From a virus: DNA of 23,287 bases. The notes below the pieces were generated by a model, which was given only the letters and a program-made list of their open reading frames with translations, was not told the origin of the DNA and ran no database searches. Where the stretch lies: positions 1-23,287 of the IMG/VR virus record IMGVR_UViG_3300010430_000466, one strand, 5' to 3'. Of this stretch, positions 8,432 through 20,792 are shown in pieces (position 1 is the first letter of the stretch; every line of letters starts with the position of its first letter). Made by a program: the position numbers and the translations under genes.

Positions 8432-8941
8432 TTACTTAGCCGCAGCTTTAGCTGGCGCTTTTTTTGTTGCTGCTGCGTCTTTTTCAGCTTGCTCTAATAG
8501 TGCTTTAGCTTCTGCTTTGGCCTTAGCAATAATGTCATCAGCTTCAGCTGCCGCTGCTTTTGCCTTTGCTGCCGCTTCTTGTTCTGCTTTAGCTAACAAT
8601 GCTTGAGCAGCATCATCAGAGGCGTGTGCAAGCTCACTGGTATTCTCACCATCACTGGCAAGTACGGCTTTAGCAAGGTCTGCAACAGCAAGTACACCTT
8701 CAACACGTTGGCCTGCTTTAGTTAACGCTTTAACAACGCCTGTTTCGCGTTCAACTTTATAGTCGAACACTTCATCTGGCTTAACTTGGCGGGTTTGTTT
8801 TTTGGTAAGCGTGTTGCCACGTTCATCGGTTTTAGGTTTATTGTCGTCGCCTAAGTCAACGACTTCTTCGTATAGCTCAAGCGCTTTAGATGCAATTTCT
8901 AAAACAGCATGGCCTTTAGTAAGTAAAGCAAAAAGACTCAT
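8432..8941 (-). CDS. Ala/Lys-rich capsid-associated or scaffold-like protein
   Basis: This 169-residue protein has a structured N-terminal half (MSLFALLTKGHAVLEIASKA, then a basic KKQTRQVKPDEVFDYKVE region). Its C-terminal half, from about 110, is almost pure Ala/Lys/Glu heptads (AKAEQEAAAKAKAAAAEADD), predicted as a long helix or coiled coil. It lies just before the protease-capsid gene, 11 bp apart, where phages place scaffold or decoration genes. It is the first gene after the 35-bp repeat and the AT-rich membrane-protein cargo. No family was recognised; the scaffold idea rests on composition and position. Confidence 0.72.
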   Translation of the reverse strand: MSLFALLTKGHAVLEIASKALELYEEVVDLGDDNKPKTDERGNTLTKKQTRQVKPDEVFDYKVERETGVVKALTKAGQRVEGVLAVADLAKAVLASDGENTSELAHASDDAAQALLAKAEQEAAAKAKAAAAEADDIIAKAKAEAKALLEQAEKDAAATKKAPAKAAAK

Positions 8942-8995: not shown

Positions 8996-9030
8996 TTTGT
9001 TGAAGGGCTAAATTAAAGGGTTTTAGGAAA
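8996..9030. repeat. 35-bp repeat copy 1, candidate late promoter element upstream of capsid genes
   Basis: The core CTAAATTAAAGGGTTTTAG (with GGG before it) is identical to the copy at 16330-16364. The wider 35 bp match at 31 positions. On the transcribed strand it contains TTTAAT, a 5/6 match to a -10 box, with no recognisable -35, and CTAAA-N9-TTTAG symmetry. It lies 12 bp past the stop of the membrane-protein cargo gene and about 55 bp before the scaffold-like gene. Confidence 0.7.
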
Positions 9031-9037
9031 ATTGATA

Positions 9038-9931
9038 TTAAAGTTTATAAGCTTCAATCTCCTTTTCTTTATCCTCTAGGGCAGCGAGGATAATTTGTAC
9101 GTCAGATGGCATGATTAGACCTACTCGAGAGATAAGAATGCTAGCTTCAAAAACAGCTTGTAGAAATAAATCTGCACTTTCATAAACATCCTCTTTTTTT
9201 ACAAAATGACTTATTTGAATGAAAATGCCAAGATCCCTATAAAATGAAGCTATTCTTTGAAAATAATTATCTTCTTTTTCAATGTTTCCATTCATATAGT
9301 TAATTAAAAAACTATTATCAATTTTATTCACTTCATCTAAAATTTGAGGAATTATTGGCTTAAAGTCGTTTGCTATTCTAGATGTAACCATAAAGAAACT
9401 TTGTATCGCTGATGGTGAGTTTTCAGGGAATAGCAAGTCATAAAATTTACCATAATCAACTATAATTTTTTTTACATCTGGAGTATGGTTAACACCATCT
9501 AAAACACTCTGACACCTTTCAATAAATTGTTTCCTGTGCTCACAATAAAGAACAAAATTTTCTTTTGTGTAGTTTAACTCATATTGATTTTCAGCCAACT
9601 TAAATTGGTTAGATGCTAAACTCAACTGCTTACTTACTTTTGTTAACTGTGCCGATAATTGCAAGCTACGATGGTACATACCAATCAAAGTAGTTAGTGC
9701 AACCAACCCTGTAAACAACCCAATTGGCAGTCCGAACATAGATATGACAGCATTCCAATTTTCTATTTTACGCCAATCAACAACAAATTCATTCCAAGTG
9801 AATGCAACTTGAAAAATAAGAAAAGCTAGCGGGATAATGATTGTCGCTATTAGTAATAAGTTAAACGCATTATGCCAATTTTCAATTGAATTACTTTCCT
9901 GCTGTTCTTTATCGTATTCTTTCACAGTCAT
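9038..9931 (-). CDS. Cargo membrane protein in the head operon, unknown function
   Basis: This 297-residue protein has two membrane segments (about 22-45, AFNLLLIATIIIPLAFLIF; about 62-85, AVISMFGLPIGLFTGLVALT). A heptad-rich stretch follows (about 88-120, SLQLSAQLTKVSKQLSLASN), then a roughly 180-residue soluble C-terminal domain. This layout recalls putative abortive-infection membrane proteins such as the putAbiC type, but I cannot confirm homology. Base composition is strikingly AT-rich compared with the head genes on both sides. The start is either ATG at 9931 or GTG two codons later; AAGGA is better spaced for the GTG. It interrupts an otherwise continuous structural operon, which marks it as a moron, probably expressed in the lysogen. 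Confidence 0.8.
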   Translation of the reverse strand: MTVKEYDKEQQESNSIENWHNAFNLLLIATIIIPLAFLIFQVAFTWNEFVVDWRKIENWNAVISMFGLPIGLFTGLVALTTLIGMYHRSLQLSAQLTKVSKQLSLASNQFKLAENQYELNYTKENFVLYCEHRKQFIERCQSVLDGVNHTPDVKKIIVDYGKFYDLLFPENSPSAIQSFFMVTSRIANDFKPIIPQILDEVNKIDNSFLINYMNGNIEKEDNYFQRIASFYRDLGIFIQISHFVKKEDVYESADLFLQAVFEASILISRVGLIMPSDVQIILAALEDKEKEIEAYKL

Positions 9932-9975
9932 CCTTAAGTTTTAAACTATTTAAACTCCCTTTAAAATACCACAGC

Positions 9976-10815
9976 CTATTCTATTACTGCACGTGTCTTA
10001 TCAACTTCCCAGTGTTTCATCACTGGCACCGTAAAGCAGCTGCAATTGACTGTTTCTTTTGCTGGCGCTTTGGGGTCATGAGGGTGCATCATCTTAATGC
10101 CCCCAATAGTAAAAGGTTCATTTGCTGCAGCGCGAGTATTGTTTGCGGCCAAGTGACTAACGCGGTGTTCTTTACGCCGACCTAAGCGCCACTCTTTTTC
10201 CATGCCTGGTACTGCATCACCAATTTCGTTCATACGCATATGGCTTGCTGTGTTATACAAGCGGCTAAGCTCAGTGTTTACAATCGCCTTAGCGCGCCAC
10301 ATCTTTTTCTCGCCTAAACTTTCTGCTATGGCTTTTTTAGCGGTTTCGCTATCTTGCGCCCCCATCATCACAAGCCCAAGTTGCGATCGAATATAATCAG
10401 CCTTACCGCTTAACACATCTTTAATTCGGTCAACCATAAAATTATCAATGGCCACAAGCTGGCGATGCTGTAAAAGCTGCGTCATAGCATTTACCGTTAC
10501 ACCACCGGCTTTAAGGGGCGCATCAATTAAATTAATACCTGCTACCCATGTGGTTTGTGAAAAAGCTTTAATTTGTGCAGCGCTTCGCTCACCCAGTTCA
10601 AGCATCACCTGGTTAATTTGCCCCTGCAATTTGCCATAGTGCCATTGCTGCCAATCTGTCGGCTGCCCTTGTAAAATGGTTTGCGTGTTTTCTTCAGCTA
10701 GCTCAAGCAAACGCAATAGCGAATCCCAAAGCCCCTGCTTATTTTTAAGTAGCGCTTTGAGCTGCGCTGTACGGGCTTTATTAAAGGCCTTGGTGCGTTC
10801 ACTCGGTGTCATCAT
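9976..10815 (-). CDS. Phage head morphogenesis protein (SPP1 gp7 / Mu gpF-like)
   Basis: This 279-residue protein follows the portal gene, overlapping it by 17 bp. The C-terminal part is typical of the SPP1 gp7 / Mu F family: a conserved helical block (IVNTELSRLYNTASHMRMNE), then EWRLGRRKEHRVSHLAANNTRA, and the family's ending HPHDPKAP-AKETVNCSCFTVPV with paired cysteines. These minor capsid proteins bind the portal and help head assembly or DNA ejection. The length is within the family range. The gene is followed by the cargo membrane gene instead of directly by the protease and capsid genes. Confidence 0.87.
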   Translation of the reverse strand: MMTPSERTKAFNKARTAQLKALLKNKQGLWDSLLRLLELAEENTQTILQGQPTDWQQWHYGKLQGQINQVMLELGERSAAQIKAFSQTTWVAGINLIDAPLKAGGVTVNAMTQLLQHRQLVAIDNFMVDRIKDVLSGKADYIRSQLGLVMMGAQDSETAKKAIAESLGEKKMWRAKAIVNTELSRLYNTASHMRMNEIGDAVPGMEKEWRLGRRKEHRVSHLAANNTRAAANEPFTIGGIKMMHPHDPKAPAKETVNCSCFTVPVMKHWEVDKTRAVIE

Positions 10816-15528: not shown

Positions 15529-15742
15529 GGGGGTTACTCCTGTTTATTTTTGCTGTATTTGCAATGCGGGCTTCGGCTTCAAGGCGAACACCGCTAATTG
15601 AGTGCCAGCCTTTTAAAAATGCATTAACTAAAGTGGGGTCGCCCACAGGGCAAATGCTCTGTGGGTCTGGGTTGGTACCATTTTGGTAAGTAGTAATGCG
15701 CGCTTCGCGACCACGCTTAACGTAGTGAGGATAACTTTTCAT
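15521..15742 (-). CDS. Hypothetical phage protein, 73 residues
   Basis: The reading is MKSYPHYVKRGREARITTYQ, then NGTNPDPQSICPVGDPTLVNAFLKGWHSIS, rich in turns with no membrane segment. The start overlaps the endolysin stop as ATGA and the end overlaps the DUF2730-like gene, so it is probably translated. No family was recognised. Because it lies between the endolysin and a membrane-anchored coiled-coil protein, it may belong to the lysis cassette. Confidence 0.65.
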   Translation of the reverse strand: MKSYPHYVKRGREARITTYQNGTNPDPQSICPVGDPTLVNAFLKGWHSISGVRLEAEARIANTAKINRSNPRG

Positions 15743-16311
15743 GCTGCCTCACTCATTTTAAGTTCACGAATAACGCGCTCGATGCGGTTTTCAAGCTTAA
15801 ATAAGCGACGATGCCAGCCAAATAAAAACGCAATTTGGCTAGGATCATTAACTACAATACGGCTGTATTTGCTGGCGCGGCGTGCAAAGTAGTCAACCAT
15901 TAAGTTAGTTTGGTTTGCGTTAATGGCTGCAGCAAAGGTGCGTGAACCCAATATGCCATCAACCTTTACTCGCAATACTTGCTGCAAAAGCATATTGGCC
16001 AGTGGCACGCCATGGTTAATAGCAGAATCTAAATGCAACATAGCTAATTCATATAAACCATACTCAGCCAGTTCTTTAGCACGGCTACCACGCCAAAAAT
16101 CACGATGATAAATGCGCATGGCTTGAGGCCATGTCAAATTAGCTATATCAACATTCGGGTAAGCAGCTTGGCTTATGCCATACCGCGTTCGCCCACCTTT
16201 GTCGGCGCTATGATCAGAGTCGCCTCCTTCTGCCTCATATATCCAGTCCATGCAAAATAAAAACGCACGGCTGTAATTCGGGGTAAGGTCGGCAAAGTTT
16301 TGTGTTTTCAT
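15739..16311 (-). CDS. Endolysin, glycoside hydrolase family 108 lysozyme (Mu lys-like)
   Basis: This 190-residue muramidase should cut peptidoglycan at the end of infection. The N-terminal domain carries the GH108 signature: E-A-E-G-G at 26-30, with E28 as probable catalytic acid, then SADKGGRTRYGISQAAYPNVD (residues 35-55) and AMRIYHRDFWRG. The C-terminal part includes DGILGSRTFAAAINANQ, like the family's peptidoglycan-binding second domain. No signal peptide is visible, so release should need a holin. The start codon is overlapped by a perfect 8-bp hairpin and no free Shine-Dalgarno sequence is seen. It is the first gene of the late operon after a 35-bp repeat. Confidence 0.92.
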   Translation of the reverse strand: MKTQNFADLTPNYSRAFLFCMDWIYEAEGGDSDHSADKGGRTRYGISQAAYPNVDIANLTWPQAMRIYHRDFWRGSRAKELAEYGLYELAMLHLDSAINHGVPLANMLLQQVLRVKVDGILGSRTFAAAINANQTNLMVDYFARRASKYSRIVVNDPSQIAFLFGWHRRLFKLENRIERVIRELKMSEAA

Positions 16312-16329
16312 AGCGCCAGTGTGGCGCTA
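16311..16329 (-). promoter_or_regulatory. 8-bp hairpin covering the endolysin start
   Basis: TAGCGCCA-GTG-TGGCGCTA is a perfect inverted repeat whose inner edge includes the A and T of the endolysin initiation codon on the transcribed strand. No T-run follows, so it is not a classical terminator. It would mask the start region in mRNA. Confidence 0.6.
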
Positions 16330-16364
16330 TTTGCTGGGGGGCTAAATTAAAGGGTTTTAGTAAA
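16330..16364. repeat. 35-bp repeat copy 2, candidate late promoter element upstream of endolysin
   Basis: It shares an identical 22-bp core with 9005-9026 and matches 31 of 35 bases overall. It lies 12 bp beyond the stop of the last cargo gene and just upstream of the first late gene, the position of Mu Plys. On the transcribed strand it contains TTTAAT as a possible -10 without a -35, as expected for an activator-dependent promoter. Confidence 0.7.
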
Positions 16365-16372
16365 AATGAGAA

Positions 16373-17065
16373 TTAGTTGGGAGTTTTTGTTTGTTCCTCA
16401 ACTTTCAAGTTCTGAAATGGTGGAGTCTCTTTGGTTGACTCATTCTGAGCAGTTTGTTTTTGCTCTTCGACAATTTCTAGAACCGATTCCATAAGCTCTT
16501 CTTTAGAAAAATTAGTTAGAAGCTGCTTCTCTAATGTCTCTATTCTAGCTTGTGATATTTTTAGCCTTTCTTCACTGATAGTAATGTTTTTATTCGTTAG
16601 ATAGCCCGAAACCATTAAAGATAAAAATGCTATCAAAAATGAAGCCAGACCTATTTGTCTAGTCAGCTTGTTATGAGTATTTGTGTCATTGTGAGCCTCT
16701 ATCTTCAACGCAAAATCAAGGCCTTTGGCTGTAAGAGTATAAACTTTATGAGAAAGAATTAAGGGCGAATTGTCACTTGCTTCAATAACTCTATTAACAG
16801 CCTCTTGTTTTTCCCACTGCTTTATTAAGCCATCTTTAACTAATTTTCCAAGTTGTATCTCACAATATTCAAATAAATTTGTATTTTGAACTTCTGTAAC
16901 ATCAACTCCTGATTCTTTTAATAACTTGATGCAATTGTTCTTGTATTCAGGGTATAACTCAATGAAATAGTCAGCTTCAGGAAAAACCAACTCATCGTAT
17001 TTACGGAGCGTTATAAGCAGTTTTTCTACCGGATAATGATTGATATTTGTTAAATCTGCTTTCAT
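16373..17065 (-). CDS. Cargo protein D: wHTH-like, membrane segment and coiled coil
   Basis: This 230-residue protein is a paralogue of the gene just upstream. Shared blocks are Y-P-x-E-K-L-L near the N-terminus (11-17), ELVF-like, YTLTAKGLDFALKIEAHND (109-127), T-H-N-K-L, then one membrane segment (about 138-156, IGLASFLIAFLSLMVSGYL). A coiled coil follows (about 160-190) and then a Gln/Glu/Thr-rich tail. The LTxKGLD phrase is common at the end of winged-helix domains. The start overlaps the previous stop as ATGA. It is visibly AT-rich. No known family was recognised. As the last gene of a four-gene operon it is probably part of one complex with its paralogue. Confidence 0.82.
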   Translation of the reverse strand: MKADLTNINHYPVEKLLITLRKYDELVFPEADYFIELYPEYKNNCIKLLKESGVDVTEVQNTNLFEYCEIQLGKLVKDGLIKQWEKQEAVNRVIEASDNSPLILSHKVYTLTAKGLDFALKIEAHNDTNTHNKLTRQIGLASFLIAFLSLMVSGYLTNKNITISEERLKISQARIETLEKQLLTNFSKEELMESVLEIVEEQKQTAQNESTKETPPFQNLKVEEQTKTPN

Positions 17066-17703
17066 TTATTATCTGCTTTCTTAGTTTTGCCCAATTCAGA
17101 TGTCTGCTCTTCTTGCTGATGTACTTTTTCACCTAATGACTTAATTTGCTGTTGCTGTATTTCCAAGCGCTGTTGGTTTAGTTGCATATTTTGGTTAGCT
17201 ATATAGGCCAAGTATGCTGAGACACTAACAGCCACTAGTGATAAGAGAAAAGAAGAACCTGCAATCCAGCGCATTAATGTATTGTGTTTATGAGTATCGT
17301 TATGCCTGCGTTCGGCGTCATTATGAGCTTCAAGCTTTAATACCAAATCCAAACCTTTGCTAGTCAGATTATATGCAACATTCCTATAGCGAACTTTGGC
17401 ATTAACACCAGAGTCATCAAGCTCCACTCTGTGGGCTATTGGTCTCCATTCATTAATGAACTCATCTCTAGTTAGTTGGTTTAAAATCTTGGTACCTTCT
17501 AGTCGCTTATCTTCATCATGAAAATCACTAAAATCTATACCAATTGCTTCAAGTAAAATTTCATAGCTTTTTACTAATTCAGGAAATTGATTAAAGGGTG
17601 AGTCATTACCTACAAAAACTAAATTTGGGTGCTCCCTAAACATCAATAATAACTTTTCTATTGGATAATAATTATTATTAATTATTTTTGGCATTACTCG
17701 CAT
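17062..17703 (-). CDS. Cargo protein C: paralogue of protein D with membrane segment and coiled coil
   Basis: The ATG at 17703 (GGAAC upstream) is preferred over a TTG at 17721; the ATG at 17694 is also possible and aligns better with the paralogue. The protein has about 213 residues with NNYYPIEKLLLMFREHPNLVF at the N-terminus (14-34), YNLTSKGLDLVLKLEAHND (111-129), DTHKHNTLMRW, a membrane segment (about 147-167) and a Gln-rich coiled coil (NQNMQLNQQRLEIQQQQIKS, 171-190). The architecture is the same as the next gene, so the pair arose by duplication and then diverged. It is AT-rich and translationally coupled to the following gene. Function is unknown. Confidence 0.8.
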   Translation of the reverse strand: MRVMPKIINNNYYPIEKLLLMFREHPNLVFVGNDSPFNQFPELVKSYEILLEAIGIDFSDFHDEDKRLEGTKILNQLTRDEFINEWRPIAHRVELDDSGVNAKVRYRNVAYNLTSKGLDLVLKLEAHNDAERRHNDTHKHNTLMRWIAGSSFLLSLVAVSVSAYLAYIANQNMQLNQQRLEIQQQQIKSLGEKVHQQEEQTSELGKTKKADNK

Positions 17704-17717
17704 ATAGTTCCAGAGAC

Positions 17718-18911
17718 TCAATTATAAGCTTTACAAAATAACCAAAATGTTAACCCTAGCAAGACAAATGAAACAAATATAGAAAAGCCCAGTTTCAATT
17801 GTACTTTTGTTTCTGCACTTAAGATTTCACCTTTTGCTCTGAGAATATCATCTGCTTCATCTTCAAAATTTAAAGCTAATTGCTCAAATACACTAACGTA
17901 TTCTTTTTTTAGTATTTTAAGGTTTGAGAATTGCCCGAAAAGATTGAATACTAAGATCGCTACAAGGGAAGTAACAGTGACTAACACCGTCACATTTTTA
18001 GCAAATTCCATACTCCCAAATGTGCTAGCTTCAACTTGAGTTGTAGCAAACCAAATACCGGCGGGGAGTGATAAAAGCTTTGTAGCTACATTATCAAATA
18101 CGTCATAAACTTTCTGAGTATATTCAGAGCGCTTTTCTTGATACTCCTTTCTTACCTTATCGAAAGTGTAGTTTTCAACATACCCTTGGTAGCTCAGTTG
18201 AACGTTAAAAATTAACGAGCTCAAGTGTTGTACTAAATAACTAAAACGTTTTTTTACATCAACATCTTTTAAAAAGCTCACTAATTCCTTGCAAAGCAAA
18301 CAGGTGATAGCCTCTTTGTGTAAATCTTTACTAAGGATTTTATCTAAAACATCAAGATCAATTGGGTGGTCTAGGTCTGACTCTGATAAAGTGAATTCAA
18401 ATGCGAGAGGCCGCTCATAGAAGATTGTTCTATCTCCCCCCTCAGTTTCCTTCGCCAGATTATGAATTAAAGTAAAAACTTTACTGACATTTTGGTAATT
18501 AATAAATTTCTCAGAGCCGCTATTTGCATCAAAAACCTCATTTGCCTCAATTAGAAAAACACTGTTTACAGGTTTCTTTACGCATTCTTCATAAGCTAAT
18601 AATTCATTCCAGTTGTTACACACAACAAAGCGACTATGAATTTTCTTACGGTGCAGCTCTACCTTAAAAAGAACATCTTCAGCAAAAAACTTTTCATCAA
18701 TAAACTCTAAAGCTTTTTCTCCTAATGGTTTGTTAGCTTTAGTGTATTCGTATGACCCACCATCGGTCAGTTCAGCATTTTCGAGTTTGCTTAAGAAAGT
18801 GAGCATCTGCGCATCAAGTTGTAACCAGCCCGTAACAGTGTCAGCCCCAAAAACTTTATTTTGGAGCCTATTAAAAACTATACTGTAAACATCGGTTATG
18901 TTGGCAGACAT
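17718..18911 (-). CDS. Cargo protein B: large soluble domain with two C-terminal membrane segments
   Basis: This 397-residue protein starts 2 bp after the NdpA-like gene. Residues 1-280 appear soluble, mixed alpha/beta. One or two weakly hydrophobic stretches occur near 278-290 (LLSLPAGIWFATT). Clear membrane segments lie at about 306-325 (NVTVLVTVTSLVAILVFNLF) and 374-393 (LGFSIFVSFVLLGLTFWLFC), flanking a charged helical loop of about 45 residues. No nuclease, kinase or ATPase motif is seen. Cysteines at 98, 110, 204, 207 do not form an obvious zinc site. The family is unrecognised. A membrane protein next to a DNA-bound partner suggests a sensor-effector relationship, but that is inference. 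Confidence 0.83.
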   Translation of the reverse strand: MSANITDVYSIVFNRLQNKVFGADTVTGWLQLDAQMLTFLSKLENAELTDGGSYEYTKANKPLGEKALEFIDEKFFAEDVLFKVELHRKKIHSRFVVCNNWNELLAYEECVKKPVNSVFLIEANEVFDANSGSEKFINYQNVSKVFTLIHNLAKETEGGDRTIFYERPLAFEFTLSESDLDHPIDLDVLDKILSKDLHKEAITCLLCKELVSFLKDVDVKKRFSYLVQHLSSLIFNVQLSYQGYVENYTFDKVRKEYQEKRSEYTQKVYDVFDNVATKLLSLPAGIWFATTQVEASTFGSMEFAKNVTVLVTVTSLVAILVFNLFGQFSNLKILKKEYVSVFEQLALNFEDEADDILRAKGEILSAETKVQLKLGFSIFVSFVLLGLTFWLFCKAYN

Positions 18912-18913
18912 GA

Positions 18914-19954
18914 TTACTCTAAATCTTTCTCTCTTGCTGCAATCTCTTCATCTAAAGACGCTTTTAAAGATGTTGGTATATTTTTAATAGTGAGTATTCC
19001 GTTCTCGTATTGTACTTCTTTACCAAGCATATCACTATCAAAGCTAATTGCCATTCCTTTACCACGCCCTGAAATCTTCTTATAGGAGCGTAAGCTAGGC
19101 TTATGAATAGCAAGATCCTCTGGTAAATCAAATTTATCTCGCGCATTTTTTACAAACTCGTCTGGCTTATCAGGGAAAACACGATTTGCAAGTTGGCTTA
19201 AAAGAACTTGATTGCCTAGTTTTTGTTGCTCTGTTATGAAGTCGTGTGCGGCTGTGATCTTCCCTGATATTTGTTCATCTGTAAAATCATATTTTTCTTT
19301 AGCAAAGCCTCTTATCGCTTTTTTGAGCGCTTTAGTTTCTTGCTTAGCGGCCTCTTTATCACGCTGACAGCCTATAAACTCTTCAAAATAATCCCTTACC
19401 TCAACAGCAAGGCCTGTTCTAAACCGGATATAACGTGTACTTAGGCCACTTTGCCACTGTGTTAGATTAATAGCAGCGCCAAGATGTAATTTTTTCAAAT
19501 CTAAAACCTGACTTGGTATAACATCTAGTTTATTAGAAATATCAATGCCATCCGTTTTATTTAGTATTGCTACTGCTAACCAGTTATCCCCTCGGGTTTC
19601 ATAGTGATAAAACACCAAGTACCCACCTTTTACCGAGGTTAACTGCTTACTTACAAGTATACTTTCATATCGCCTTGCAAGAACTTTAGTTAGTTCAGGG
19701 AAGTTTGCACAATTGTCTTTGTTGTCATAAAACTTATTCAGTTTTTGCTCAAAAACAGGTTGAGCTTCTTTATCGTCCAAAACCTGAAACTCACCAATAC
19801 TAAGGCTTGCACTACTAAATAACTCAAGCAAATCTTCAGATAGCTTACCAGCTAAACCATCAAGGCTATTTTCTTTATCACGTAGTTGAATTGTTAATTT
19901 GTCGCCAGTATTGTCACGCCTGACTTGATGAACAATTACATGCTTTATTGCCAT
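18914..19954 (-). CDS. YejK/NdpA-like nucleoid-associated protein (37-kDa family), cargo protein A
   Basis: The ATG at 19954 is chosen because AGGAA lies 6 bases upstream and the protein then begins MAIKHVIVHQVRRD, like the NA37 family. The 346 residues are close to the roughly 335 of host YejK. Further family-like features are LSEDLLELFSSASLSIGEFQ, LVFYHYETRGDNWLAVAIL, LDVIPSQVLDLKKLHLGAAINLTQW, RTGLAVEVRDYFEEFIGC and, near the C-terminus, the basic LRSYKKISGRGKGMAISFDS before a final beta-rich domain. Family members bind the nucleoid; their biochemical activity is not well defined. Here the gene heads a four-gene AT-rich operon inside a prophage, which hints at a cargo role such as recognising incoming DNA. 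Confidence 0.88.
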   Translation of the reverse strand: MAIKHVIVHQVRRDNTGDKLTIQLRDKENSLDGLAGKLSEDLLELFSSASLSIGEFQVLDDKEAQPVFEQKLNKFYDNKDNCANFPELTKVLARRYESILVSKQLTSVKGGYLVFYHYETRGDNWLAVAILNKTDGIDISNKLDVIPSQVLDLKKLHLGAAINLTQWQSGLSTRYIRFRTGLAVEVRDYFEEFIGCQRDKEAAKQETKALKKAIRGFAKEKYDFTDEQISGKITAAHDFITEQQKLGNQVLLSQLANRVFPDKPDEFVKNARDKFDLPEDLAIHKPSLRSYKKISGRGKGMAISFDSDMLGKEVQYENGILTIKNIPTSLKASLDEEIAAREKDLE

Positions 19955-20053
19955 AGCAGTTCCTAATATTTTTTTAAAATTTAAAGGAGGGGTAACTGAA
20001 ATGTGTTGCCGCATCCTTGCTTATTGCATTGCCCTAGAGGTTCCATGTATTGT

Positions 20054-20746
20054 TTACAAGTCCTTTCCCATCCAAACAACTCGACCAACAATATGGAGTT
20101 GATCTAAACTATCTTGAGGGACAAATTGAGGTTCGTATGCTGGGTTATCTGATAGTATTTTAATTCCACCGGTAAACTGCCTTTGCAAGCGTTTAACCAA
20201 CAAATGACTATCTAAATCTATTACGTATATACCATCTACAAAGTTATCTAAGGGAGATGTATCAACCACTAATGGCTCACCACTGAGGATAGTTGGGTGC
20301 ATACTATCCCCCTTAGCTGTAATAACCACTAAATTATTTTTATTTAAATTTCGTTTAGATAACCAATGGCAATCAAACACCATACTCTTTTCAGTATAGG
20401 CTTCATTTACAACTATTGAACCGTGACCAGCTGAAGCTTCCACATCAATTACTGGTACATAAAATAAATTCGAAGGTAGAAAATCTGACTCATCAGGCTT
20501 AACTAGACGTTTCACTTCTGAACCCTTAGACACCTTTTCTTCACTTTCAAACTTTTTTGAACTCTCGCCAGTTACTACAAAGTGAATATCGAAACCAATC
20601 TTCCCTAGTTCTGCTAGCTTATCAGATGGTATCGGAGAGCCCGATTCCCAACGGTAGTATGTGACCTTACTTACACCTATAGACTCAAAGACATCCTTTT
20701 GCTTTAGGTTAAGCCTTTCTCTTTCTTGCAACAAAAAAGGTTTCAT
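20054..20746 (-). CDS. Lysogeny repressor with HTH and S24 peptidase domain (CI-like)
   Basis: The start at ATG 20746 (MKPFLLQERERLNLKQKDVF) fits HTH repressors. A GTG at 20776 would add ten residues and begin inside the operator. Residues about 5-60 form an HTH (KQKDVFESIGVSKVTYYRWESG). The C-terminal S24/LexA-like domain has an Ala-Gly in VEASAGHGS (probable cleavage point), GDSMHPTI with the nucleophilic Ser, and LLVKRLQRQF with the catalytic Lys. It should keep the prophage silent and self-cleave after RecA activation. Mu c lacks such a peptidase domain, so induction here is probably SOS-linked. It is divergent from ner across the operator region. Confidence 0.92.
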   Translation of the reverse strand: MKPFLLQERERLNLKQKDVFESIGVSKVTYYRWESGSPIPSDKLAELGKIGFDIHFVVTGESSKKFESEEKVSKGSEVKRLVKPDESDFLPSNLFYVPVIDVEASAGHGSIVVNEAYTEKSMVFDCHWLSKRNLNKNNLVVITAKGDSMHPTILSGEPLVVDTSPLDNFVDGIYVIDLDSHLLVKRLQRQFTGGIKILSDNPAYEPQFVPQDSLDQLHIVGRVVWMGKDL

Positions 20747-20762
20747 ATGTTTATCTTTATTA

Positions 20763-20792
20763 TTGACAGGGTTCACATATGAACCCTATACT
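20763..20792 (+). promoter_or_regulatory. Early rightward promoter TTGACA-N18-TATACT
   Basis: A perfect -35 (20763-20768) and a 5/6 -10 (20787-20792) point toward ner. Transcription should begin near 20799. The 18-bp spacer is exactly the palindromic operator, so repressor binding would block polymerase directly. A weaker leftward candidate (TTTAGT-N16-TATAGG) overlaps it on the other strand and could serve the repressor gene. Confidence 0.8.
20769..20786. promoter_or_regulatory. Palindromic operator GGGTTCA-CATA-TGAACCC
   Basis: This perfect 7-bp inverted repeat with a 4-bp centre lies between divergent repressor and ner genes. Possible related half-sites are TTGACCC (20793-20799) and GGGTTAC (20848-20854). 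It is the probable binding site of the CI-like repressor, possibly also of the Ner-like protein. Confidence 0.75.

What the first reader, a model, noticed from the sequence alone, without database searches (positions are those of the whole stretch)
9038..9931. Membrane-protein moron splitting the head gene cluster
A two-TM plus coiled-coil plus cytosolic-domain protein interrupts the head operon between the F-like gene and the scaffold/capsid genes. Composition differs sharply from its neighbours. Its topology is like several abortive-infection or superinfection-exclusion proteins, but no family could be named.
Basis: partly seen in the sequence, partly recalled or inferred. Interest (0 to 1): 0.55.

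Follow-up and report, generated by a model that had tools for sequence, protein, structure and literature searches.

The report
Swappable membrane moron in prophage heads
In a group of related temperate phages, one accessory slot between head genes carries a fast-changing membrane protein whose inner half is swapped between phages; it most likely protects the phage's bacterial host from rival phages, although no function has been shown.

Summary
ORF 9038-9931(-) is a 297-aa gene of 31.7% GC between a Mu-F-like gene and head genes of 45-46% GC, with two hydrophobic segments, a coil and a soluble C-terminal half. Read against 10 related records (with the window, 8 distinct phages), it is one type in an accessory slot. 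Flanks are about 96-98% identical in the closest relatives, yet the slot protein is only 26-34% identical to its relatives (family in 6 of 8 phages) or replaced by two small genes without detectable similarity (2 of 8). The family is modular: three phages share an 89-92% identical membrane/coil half joined to C-terminal halves only 19-33% identical. The slot ends at a conserved element (R), found exactly twice in each of 7 checkable records. The second copy borders another low-GC cassette holding relatives of the DS-1 anti-phage pair. This supports 'moron' and makes a structural role unlikely. An anti-phage function is my best reading (about 0.6) but rests on position, diversity and architecture alone. 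No family is recognised: putAbiC and SLATT cut-offs are not met. The host is unsettled and there are no expression data.

The parts
9038..9931 (-). slot-1 moron gene, 297 aa, two TM + coil + soluble C-terminal half
   Evidence: homologues at the same place
9803..9859 (-). TM helix 1 (residues 25-43)
   Evidence: hydropathy
9695..9751 (-). TM helix 2 (residues 61-79)
   Evidence: hydropathy
9566..9694 (-). coil segment (residues 80-122); the swap point between alleles lies at its end
   Evidence: alignment; sliding identity; helix prediction
9041..9565 (-). C-terminal soluble half (residues 123-297), the half that differs between phages sharing one membrane half
9940..9967 (-). upstream element L (three TTTAAA-like repeats around GGGAS) in the 44-nt gap before the gene; possible promoter or regulator site (inferred)
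9006..9030 (-). boundary element R, copy 1, 7 nt after the stop codon
8932..8983 (-). predicted hairpin over the ribosome site and start codon of the next gene; 1 of 19 pairs shows a change on both sides
16340..16364 (-). boundary element R, copy 2 (1 mismatch), at the start of the late operon
16373..20014 (-). slot-2 low-GC cassette (0.34-0.37) ending 9 nt before R copy 2: NA37/YejK-like 366 aa, DS1_2-like 397 aa, and 219-aa and 230-aa TM+coil proteins
9976..10815 (-). upstream flank: F-like head morphogenesis gene
8432..8941 (-). downstream flank: 169-aa Ala/Lys-rich protein, no family

Best explanation
The gene is a phage moron: accessory cargo in a fixed slot inside the head operon of a group of temperate phages. 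Shown: it sits between conserved genes, different phages hold different versions or other genes there, the variable stretch ends at a conserved boundary element, and the membrane/coil half and the C-terminal half have separate histories. Inferred: the two TM helices anchor it in the inner membrane with both ends inside, the coil oligomerises it, and the cytosolic half recognises a component of an incoming rival phage. It then blocks that phage, by stopping genome entry or by disturbing the membrane (abortive infection). Variation in the recognition half would be kept because different rivals are met in different hosts.
For: Slot turnover between flanks of about 96-98% nt identity in the closest relatives. 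The F-like gene is under strong constraint (dN/dS 0.01-0.07), while slot proteins of different types are 24-43% identical in each half; higher only for the N halves of L003/L006/L008 (89-92%) and L005/L010 (61%) and the C halves of L005/L006 (53%). So N and C halves are incongruent; on the multiple alignment the C halves of L003, L006 and L008 are 19-33% identical. L003 and L008 N halves differ about as much as their F-like genes (83% vs 82% nt), while L008 and L009, 90-100% identical in 13 of 14 steps of the F-like gene, carry different cargo; cargo types thus cross lineages. The other R-bounded slot of the same phage holds relatives of DS-1 (NA37 E 8e-54; DS1_1 E 1e-13 and DS1_2 E 3e-6, below cut-offs), and slot 2 of G003 and of G009 a RES-domain protein over its Pfam cut-off. 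A YejK domain is among newly validated defence domains in PMC13092281 (passages). A known moron in a similar setting defends the lysogen: Tab lies in a late operon between terminase genes >90% identical in protein (PMC10884400, passages and part of Results). Integration is suggested by bacterial genes (gpmI end, EnvC-like, S41 protease) on the contig that carries an L003-like phage, and the window encodes an S24/HTH repressor-like protein.
Against: No homologue with known function. No Pfam match over cut-off in 6 of 6 members (best 19.6 bits vs 27, PAS_GdpP); for the window protein none over cut-off in NCBIfam; best E 0.0003 in PADLOC (Cas6, 2 members) and 0.008 in PHROGs. No sigma-70 consensus was found upstream on its strand; the one promoter-like match inside element L points the other way. 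So expression in the lysogen is not shown, and the gene runs in the direction of the late genes and could be a late gene. Each of the 8 phages has something in slot 1, so there is no true empty site. dN/dS is below 1 in both halves (0.04-0.30; three of the pairs saturated), so there is no direct sign of positive selection.
Confidence: 0.6

Rival explanations
1. A late-lytic membrane protein: transcribed with the head genes after induction, it acts on the producing cell (lysis timing, exclusion of secondary infection, or countering a host defence) rather than protecting the lysogen.
For: Same strand and direction as the late operon, only 44 nt after the F-like gene; no sigma-70 consensus upstream on its strand; weak PHROG holin hit E 0.043 in the window protein only.
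Against: The endolysin lies elsewhere (15739-16311); the L element is conserved upstream of the last slot gene in both kinds of cargo, which suggests separate regulation; composition and turnover are typical of lysogen cargo (general knowledge).
Confidence: 0.22
2. A structural or morphogenetic head protein that evolves fast.
For: Fixed position in the head cluster; some gene is always present in slot 1 (8 of 8).
Against: Replaced by two small genes without detectable similarity in 2 of 8 phages, one of them (L007) about 97% identical to the window on both sides; two TM helices; 31.7% GC.
Confidence: 0.04
3. A counter-defence or host-modifying gene without anti-phage action (for example against host defences during infection, or altering host physiology).
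For: Slots of this kind are known for both defence and counter-defence (general knowledge); high diversity fits any arms race.
Against: The other slot of the same phage holds relatives of defence genes.
Confidence: 0.14

Closest known systems
Tab of Pseudomonas phage JBD26 (PMC10884400; passages and part of Results read)
   Same: Moron inside the late operon between packaging genes conserved at >90% aa among related phages; present in 2 of the group of phages tested there
   Different: [quoted passage not shown] here 297 aa, membrane, same strand
P22 SieA (PMC10883804; abstract passage and other passages) and HK97 gp15 (mentioned there)
   Same: Prophage inner-membrane protein; SieA exists as three types under 30% identical
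   Different: SieA has about 162 aa and three predicted TM, without a large cytosolic half (inferred from its length); comparison of two types showed no difference in target; no sequence link was tested here
PdpSau of Staphylococcus prophages (PMC10127798; abstract and passages)
   Same: Prophage accessory gene linked to lytic genes and exchanged with other cargo; membrane anchor plus cytosolic C-terminus
   Different: One TM, OB-fold-like C-terminus; no similarity tested
putAbiC (PF16872) proteins
   Same: Membrane segments, coil, soluble part in the same order in most of those looked at; weak profile match over TM2/coil (46 columns)
   Different: Pfam profile not matched by any of 6 members; hhalign probability only 6.8%
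P2/P4-type anti-phage hotspots (PMC9122126; start of abstract and passages)
   Same: Variable loci of phages and satellites with changing defence cargo
   Different: Here two slots per phage, each ending at the same element R, and a gene exchanged in halves

Membership tests
phage moron | extra gene between genes that are conserved in relatives, absent or replaced there | tested here: met
   family in 6 of 8 phages, other genes in 2 of 8, flanks conserved
phage moron | base composition unlike its neighbours | tested here: met
   GC 0.317 vs 0.45-0.46 in the adjacent head genes
phage moron | own promoter and terminator | tested here: inconclusive
   no sigma-70 consensus upstream and no terminator match on its strand; a promoter-like match inside L points the other way; conserved L element upstream, R and a hairpin downstream
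phage moron | expressed from the prophage, dispensable for growth | not testable with these tools
   needs RNA-seq and deletion
putAbiC (PF16872) | profile score over the Pfam cut-off | tested here: not met
   not listed for any of 6 members at E<=1 nor for the 5 others scanned singly at E<=0.1
putAbiC (PF16872) | profile-profile similarity | tested here: inconclusive
   hhalign prob 6.8%, score 27.8, above all 120 block-shuffled controls (max 25.9; reversed 16.3)
SLATT | score over the NCBIfam SLATT_1 cut-off | tested here: not met
   16.5 bits vs 41 for the window protein; listed for 1 of 6 members at E<=1; hhalign to one SLATT_1 protein gave nothing
HK97 gp15 / P22 SieA | sequence homology | not tested
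   no such protein was fetched; resemblance is by role and topology only
DS-1 (slot-2 pair, not the finding) | NCBIfam equivalog cut-offs | tested here: not met
   DS1_1 50.7 vs 330 bits, DS1_2 26.6 vs 315 bits; Pfam NA37 is met, 183.7 vs 24.6

The most novel reading that the evidence does not exclude
These phages run a modular, allele-swapping immunity protein: a constant membrane/coil effector half is recombined with exchangeable cytosolic recognition halves, and cargo is traded between phages at a repeated boundary element (R) that marks two docking slots per genome. Types shared across diverged phage lineages would then be kept by balancing selection, as in immune receptors.
Probability: 0.27. 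Interest if true: 0.65.

Novelty: new variant of a known kind. Interest (0 to 1): 0.46.

Why it matters
Phage-carried defence genes are usually found by homology or in hotspots of well-studied phages. Here a conserved 25-nt element marks two cargo slots in a phage group, so cargo can be found by position without homology. The slot-1 family offers natural chimaeras (one membrane half with three different C-terminal halves) with which the question 'which half sets specificity' can be tested directly.

Tried and rejected
Homology: hmmscan of the window protein and of the 6 family members against Pfam, PHROGs, PADLOC and NCBIfam and of the five other members singly against Pfam gave only weak hits (PAS_GdpP 19.6 bits vs 27, SLATT_1, LeoBC, Cas6, Srg, holin and others), read as noise; for the non-window members the NCBIfam cut-offs were not shown. 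tblastn of the window protein gave two Clostridioides records over 24% of the query at E 0.2 in phages and none in plasmids. L005 gave none in phages or plasmids, L008 none in phages, L003 none in plasmids (L003 in phages, L008 in plasmids, L006 and L010 were not run). The alternative 101-aa cargo gave none in phages. PDB profile search: best E 0.2.

Structure: the model of the window protein is poor (pLDDT 50.7). A model of the L005 homologue was better (72.0), but Foldseek gave no match at E<=0.001 in PDB or BFVD. VIA-align rows (best Z 7.4) lie nearly all on residues 1-126 and are at the level expected for long helices; the C-terminal half was barely tested. No fold claim is made.

putAbiC: of 14 putAbiC loci, I aligned 7 proteins (L061, L062, L064-L066, L070, L071) and compared profiles, with a shuffle control. 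Left out: L063, L067-L069 and L072, whose ORFs were short, broken or unclear, and L073 and L074, which I did not look at. It remains a lead, not membership.

Wider distribution: the genome-contig scan gave one locus, the L003-like phage in a MAG contig. Searches around that MAG (1 genome of its genus, 47 of its class, the MAG included) found the slot-1 family only in the MAG itself; the F-like protein was found in 2 of 21 relatives, the MAG and one distant 29% match. As the MAG label (Gemmatimonadetes) may not be the true host, these searches say little.

Positive selection: NG86 dN/dS is below 1 wherever it could be computed. The idea that L and R share a regulator site (common TTAAAGGG in opposite orientation) is untested. 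A relaxed version of L also hit elsewhere in L040 and L041, in another sequence context.

Full report
What is there. The window is a 23,287-base virus record with late genes on the minus strand: terminases, portal, F-like protein, protease/capsid fusion, tail tube and tape measure, and an S24/HTH repressor-like gene at 20054-20776. The flagged ORF 9038-9931(-) codes for 297 aa. Its GC is 0.317 while the adjacent late genes are 0.45-0.46. Two hydrophobic segments (25-43, 61-79), a short loop and a long helix, with repeated QFxLAxxQF motifs in the relatives, precede a soluble half. Lys/Arg counts (N-tail 2-7, loop 0-2, 30 residues after TM2 2-4) fit both ends inside, although the window protein's own N-tail is net -3. 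The fold of the window protein is not resolved (pLDDT 50.7).

Comparison with relatives. The F-like protein found 9 IMG/VR loci, and a MAG contig was found in genome contigs. With the window, slot 1 can be read in 11 records. The window and L002 are 99.92% identical over 5,077 nt, and L003, L004 and L015 are 99.95-100% identical, so there are 8 distinct phages. Six carry the 2TM family (window, L003, L005, L006 cut by the contig end, L008, L010). Two (L007, L009) carry instead a 78-aa membrane-like protein and a 101-aa protein, which show no similarity to the family in the comparisons run (on the L007 copies). Blocks on either side are 96-98% identical between the window and L003, L004, L005, L006, L007, apart from one 118-nt stretch further upstream at 81% in L005. 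In 60-nt steps the F-like gene runs at 88-100% up to its last step in window/L003, window/L005, window/L006 and window/L007. The slot runs at 33-66% (one step of 70% where it reaches R in window/L007), and identity returns to 100% just after R starts, then stays at 83-100% except for the last step of two comparisons (70-72%). F-like genes are 96-97% nt identical among window, L003, L005 and L006, while their slot proteins are 28-42% identical in each half, except L003/L006 N (92%) and L005/L006 C (53%).

Modularity. Splitting at the end of the coil (codon ~122), L003, L006 and L008 are 89-92% identical in the N half but 25-33% in the C half by pairwise alignment, 19-33% on the multiple alignment. 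L006 C is closest to L005 C (53%). The DNA identity of L003/L006 drops from 90-100% to about 50% within two 60-nt steps at that point. L003 and L008 N halves are 83% nt identical, about as diverged as their F-like genes (82%), while L008 and L009, 90-100% identical in 13 of 14 steps of the F-like gene, hold different cargo. Cargo types are thus older than, or exchanged across, the two phage lineages. dN/dS is 0.01-0.07 for the F-like gene, 0.04-0.20 for three N-half pairs and 0.26-0.30 for two C-half pairs; three further pairs were saturated.

Boundary elements. A 25-nt element R lies at the 3' end of the slot; stop codons end between 8 nt inside it and 7 nt before it in the 7 slots measured. 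In the window it occurs twice, at 9006-9030 and 16340-16364, with none in 100 shuffles, and as a 40-nt repeat of 88% identity. In 7 of 7 records where both regions were held (window, G001-G004, the G009 contig, L058) there are exactly two copies at up to 7 mismatches. At copy 2 the last accessory gene ends 9 nt before R in 4 of these 7, and 3, 33 or 148 nt in the others. The 148-nt case (L046) looks like an empty slot 2 behind a repressor-like gene (by eye). An exact scan of IMG/VR found R in 10 records, 8 of this group and 2 others (L059, L060), where it precedes a small membrane protein and a lytic-transglycosylase-like gene (these gene labels are my reading of the sequence). Element L upstream of the last slot gene was found in 8 records, all of this group, one match in each stretch held; L005 has a 1-nt variant. 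I take R for a late promoter or processing element that also serves as a recombination joint; this is inference. The downstream hairpin over the next start codon has 1 of 19 pairs with changes on both sides, which is weak support.

Slot 2. In the window it holds an NA37/YejK-like protein (PF04245 183.7 bits, cut-off 24.6) that also matches DS1_1, and a 397-aa protein that matches DS1_2, both below the NCBIfam cut-offs, plus 219-aa and 230-aa proteins with a soluble N-terminal half, TM and coil. L037 has a 210-aa relative of the 219-aa protein whose TM/coil half is nearly identical and whose other half has diverged, a pattern like that of slot 1. Slot 2 of G003 (L042) and of G009 (L044) has a RES-domain protein (PF08808, 32.9 and 35.9 bits over a cut-off of 23.2). 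L059 has a second NA37 + DS1_2-like pair that runs into R. DefensePredictor lists a YejK nucleoid-associated domain among newly validated defence domains (PMC13092281, passages); that this is DS-1 rests on the NCBIfam names.

Reading. Turnover in a fixed slot, foreign composition, modular variation and the company of defence-like cargo at the sister slot make a moron nearly certain and an anti-phage role the most likely one. Architecture (membrane anchor, coil, variable cytosolic half) suggests sensing inside the cell. Entry block and abortive membrane damage cannot be told apart here. Against this stand the lack of any recognised family, of a promoter match on its strand, and of any expression or plating data.

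Comparison with known systems. Tab is the nearest parallel in setting; SieA in being a diverse inner-membrane exclusion protein; PdpSau in being exchangeable membrane cargo. None is shown to be a homologue. putAbiC is a weak remote lead. Literature searches with moron/superinfection, Pseudoalteromonas prophage, NdpA/nucleoid-associated, SLATT, boundary-sequence and putAbiC terms listed no paper that I recognised as describing this family. That covers only the held open-access library, and apart from the five papers I saw listings only.

Host. The contig bearing the L003-like prophage begins with the end of gpmI, an EnvC-like gene (below that model's cut-off) and an S41 protease gene. The record title calls it a Gemmatimonadetes MAG. 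I suspect a gammaproteobacterium, from recall of that gene order; it is not established.

Noticed in passing
window 16373-20014: Second low-GC cassette bounded by the same R element: NA37/YejK-like and DS1_2-like pair plus two TM+coil proteins (219 and 230 aa).
   Followed up: partly
L037:14635-17328 (similar in L042, L044, L058): 897-912-aa protein with signal-peptide-like start, beta-propeller match and a HATPase_c domain (nearest NCBIfam models NarQ/NarX, below cut-off), next to a 151-aa HTH-like and a 172-aa protein, upstream of the late operon; the window and L046 have a repressor-like gene in this region. In L044 the frame is split in two. A phage-borne two-component-like sensor near the lysogeny region would be unusual.
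   Followed up: partly
L042:826-1641 and L044:577-1392: RES-domain proteins of 271 aa as the last accessory gene before R copy 2.
   Followed up: partly
L059:6186-8395: Another NA37 + DS1_2-like pair running into R in a phage record that was found only through the R pattern.
   Followed up: partly
window 16311-16329: GC-rich inverted repeat (tagcgccacactggcgcta) shortly after R copy 2 and reaching the start codon of the endolysin gene, parallel to the hairpin after copy 1.
   Followed up: no
window 9957-9964 and 9006-9030: L and R share TTAAAGGG in opposite orientation; only 5 such octamers occur in the window.
   Followed up: partly
L007:5850-6479 and L009:5850-6481: Alternative slot-1 cargo, a 78-aa membrane-like protein and a 101-aa acidic protein; no Pfam or PHROG family above noise and, for the 101-aa protein, no phage match.
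   Followed up: partly
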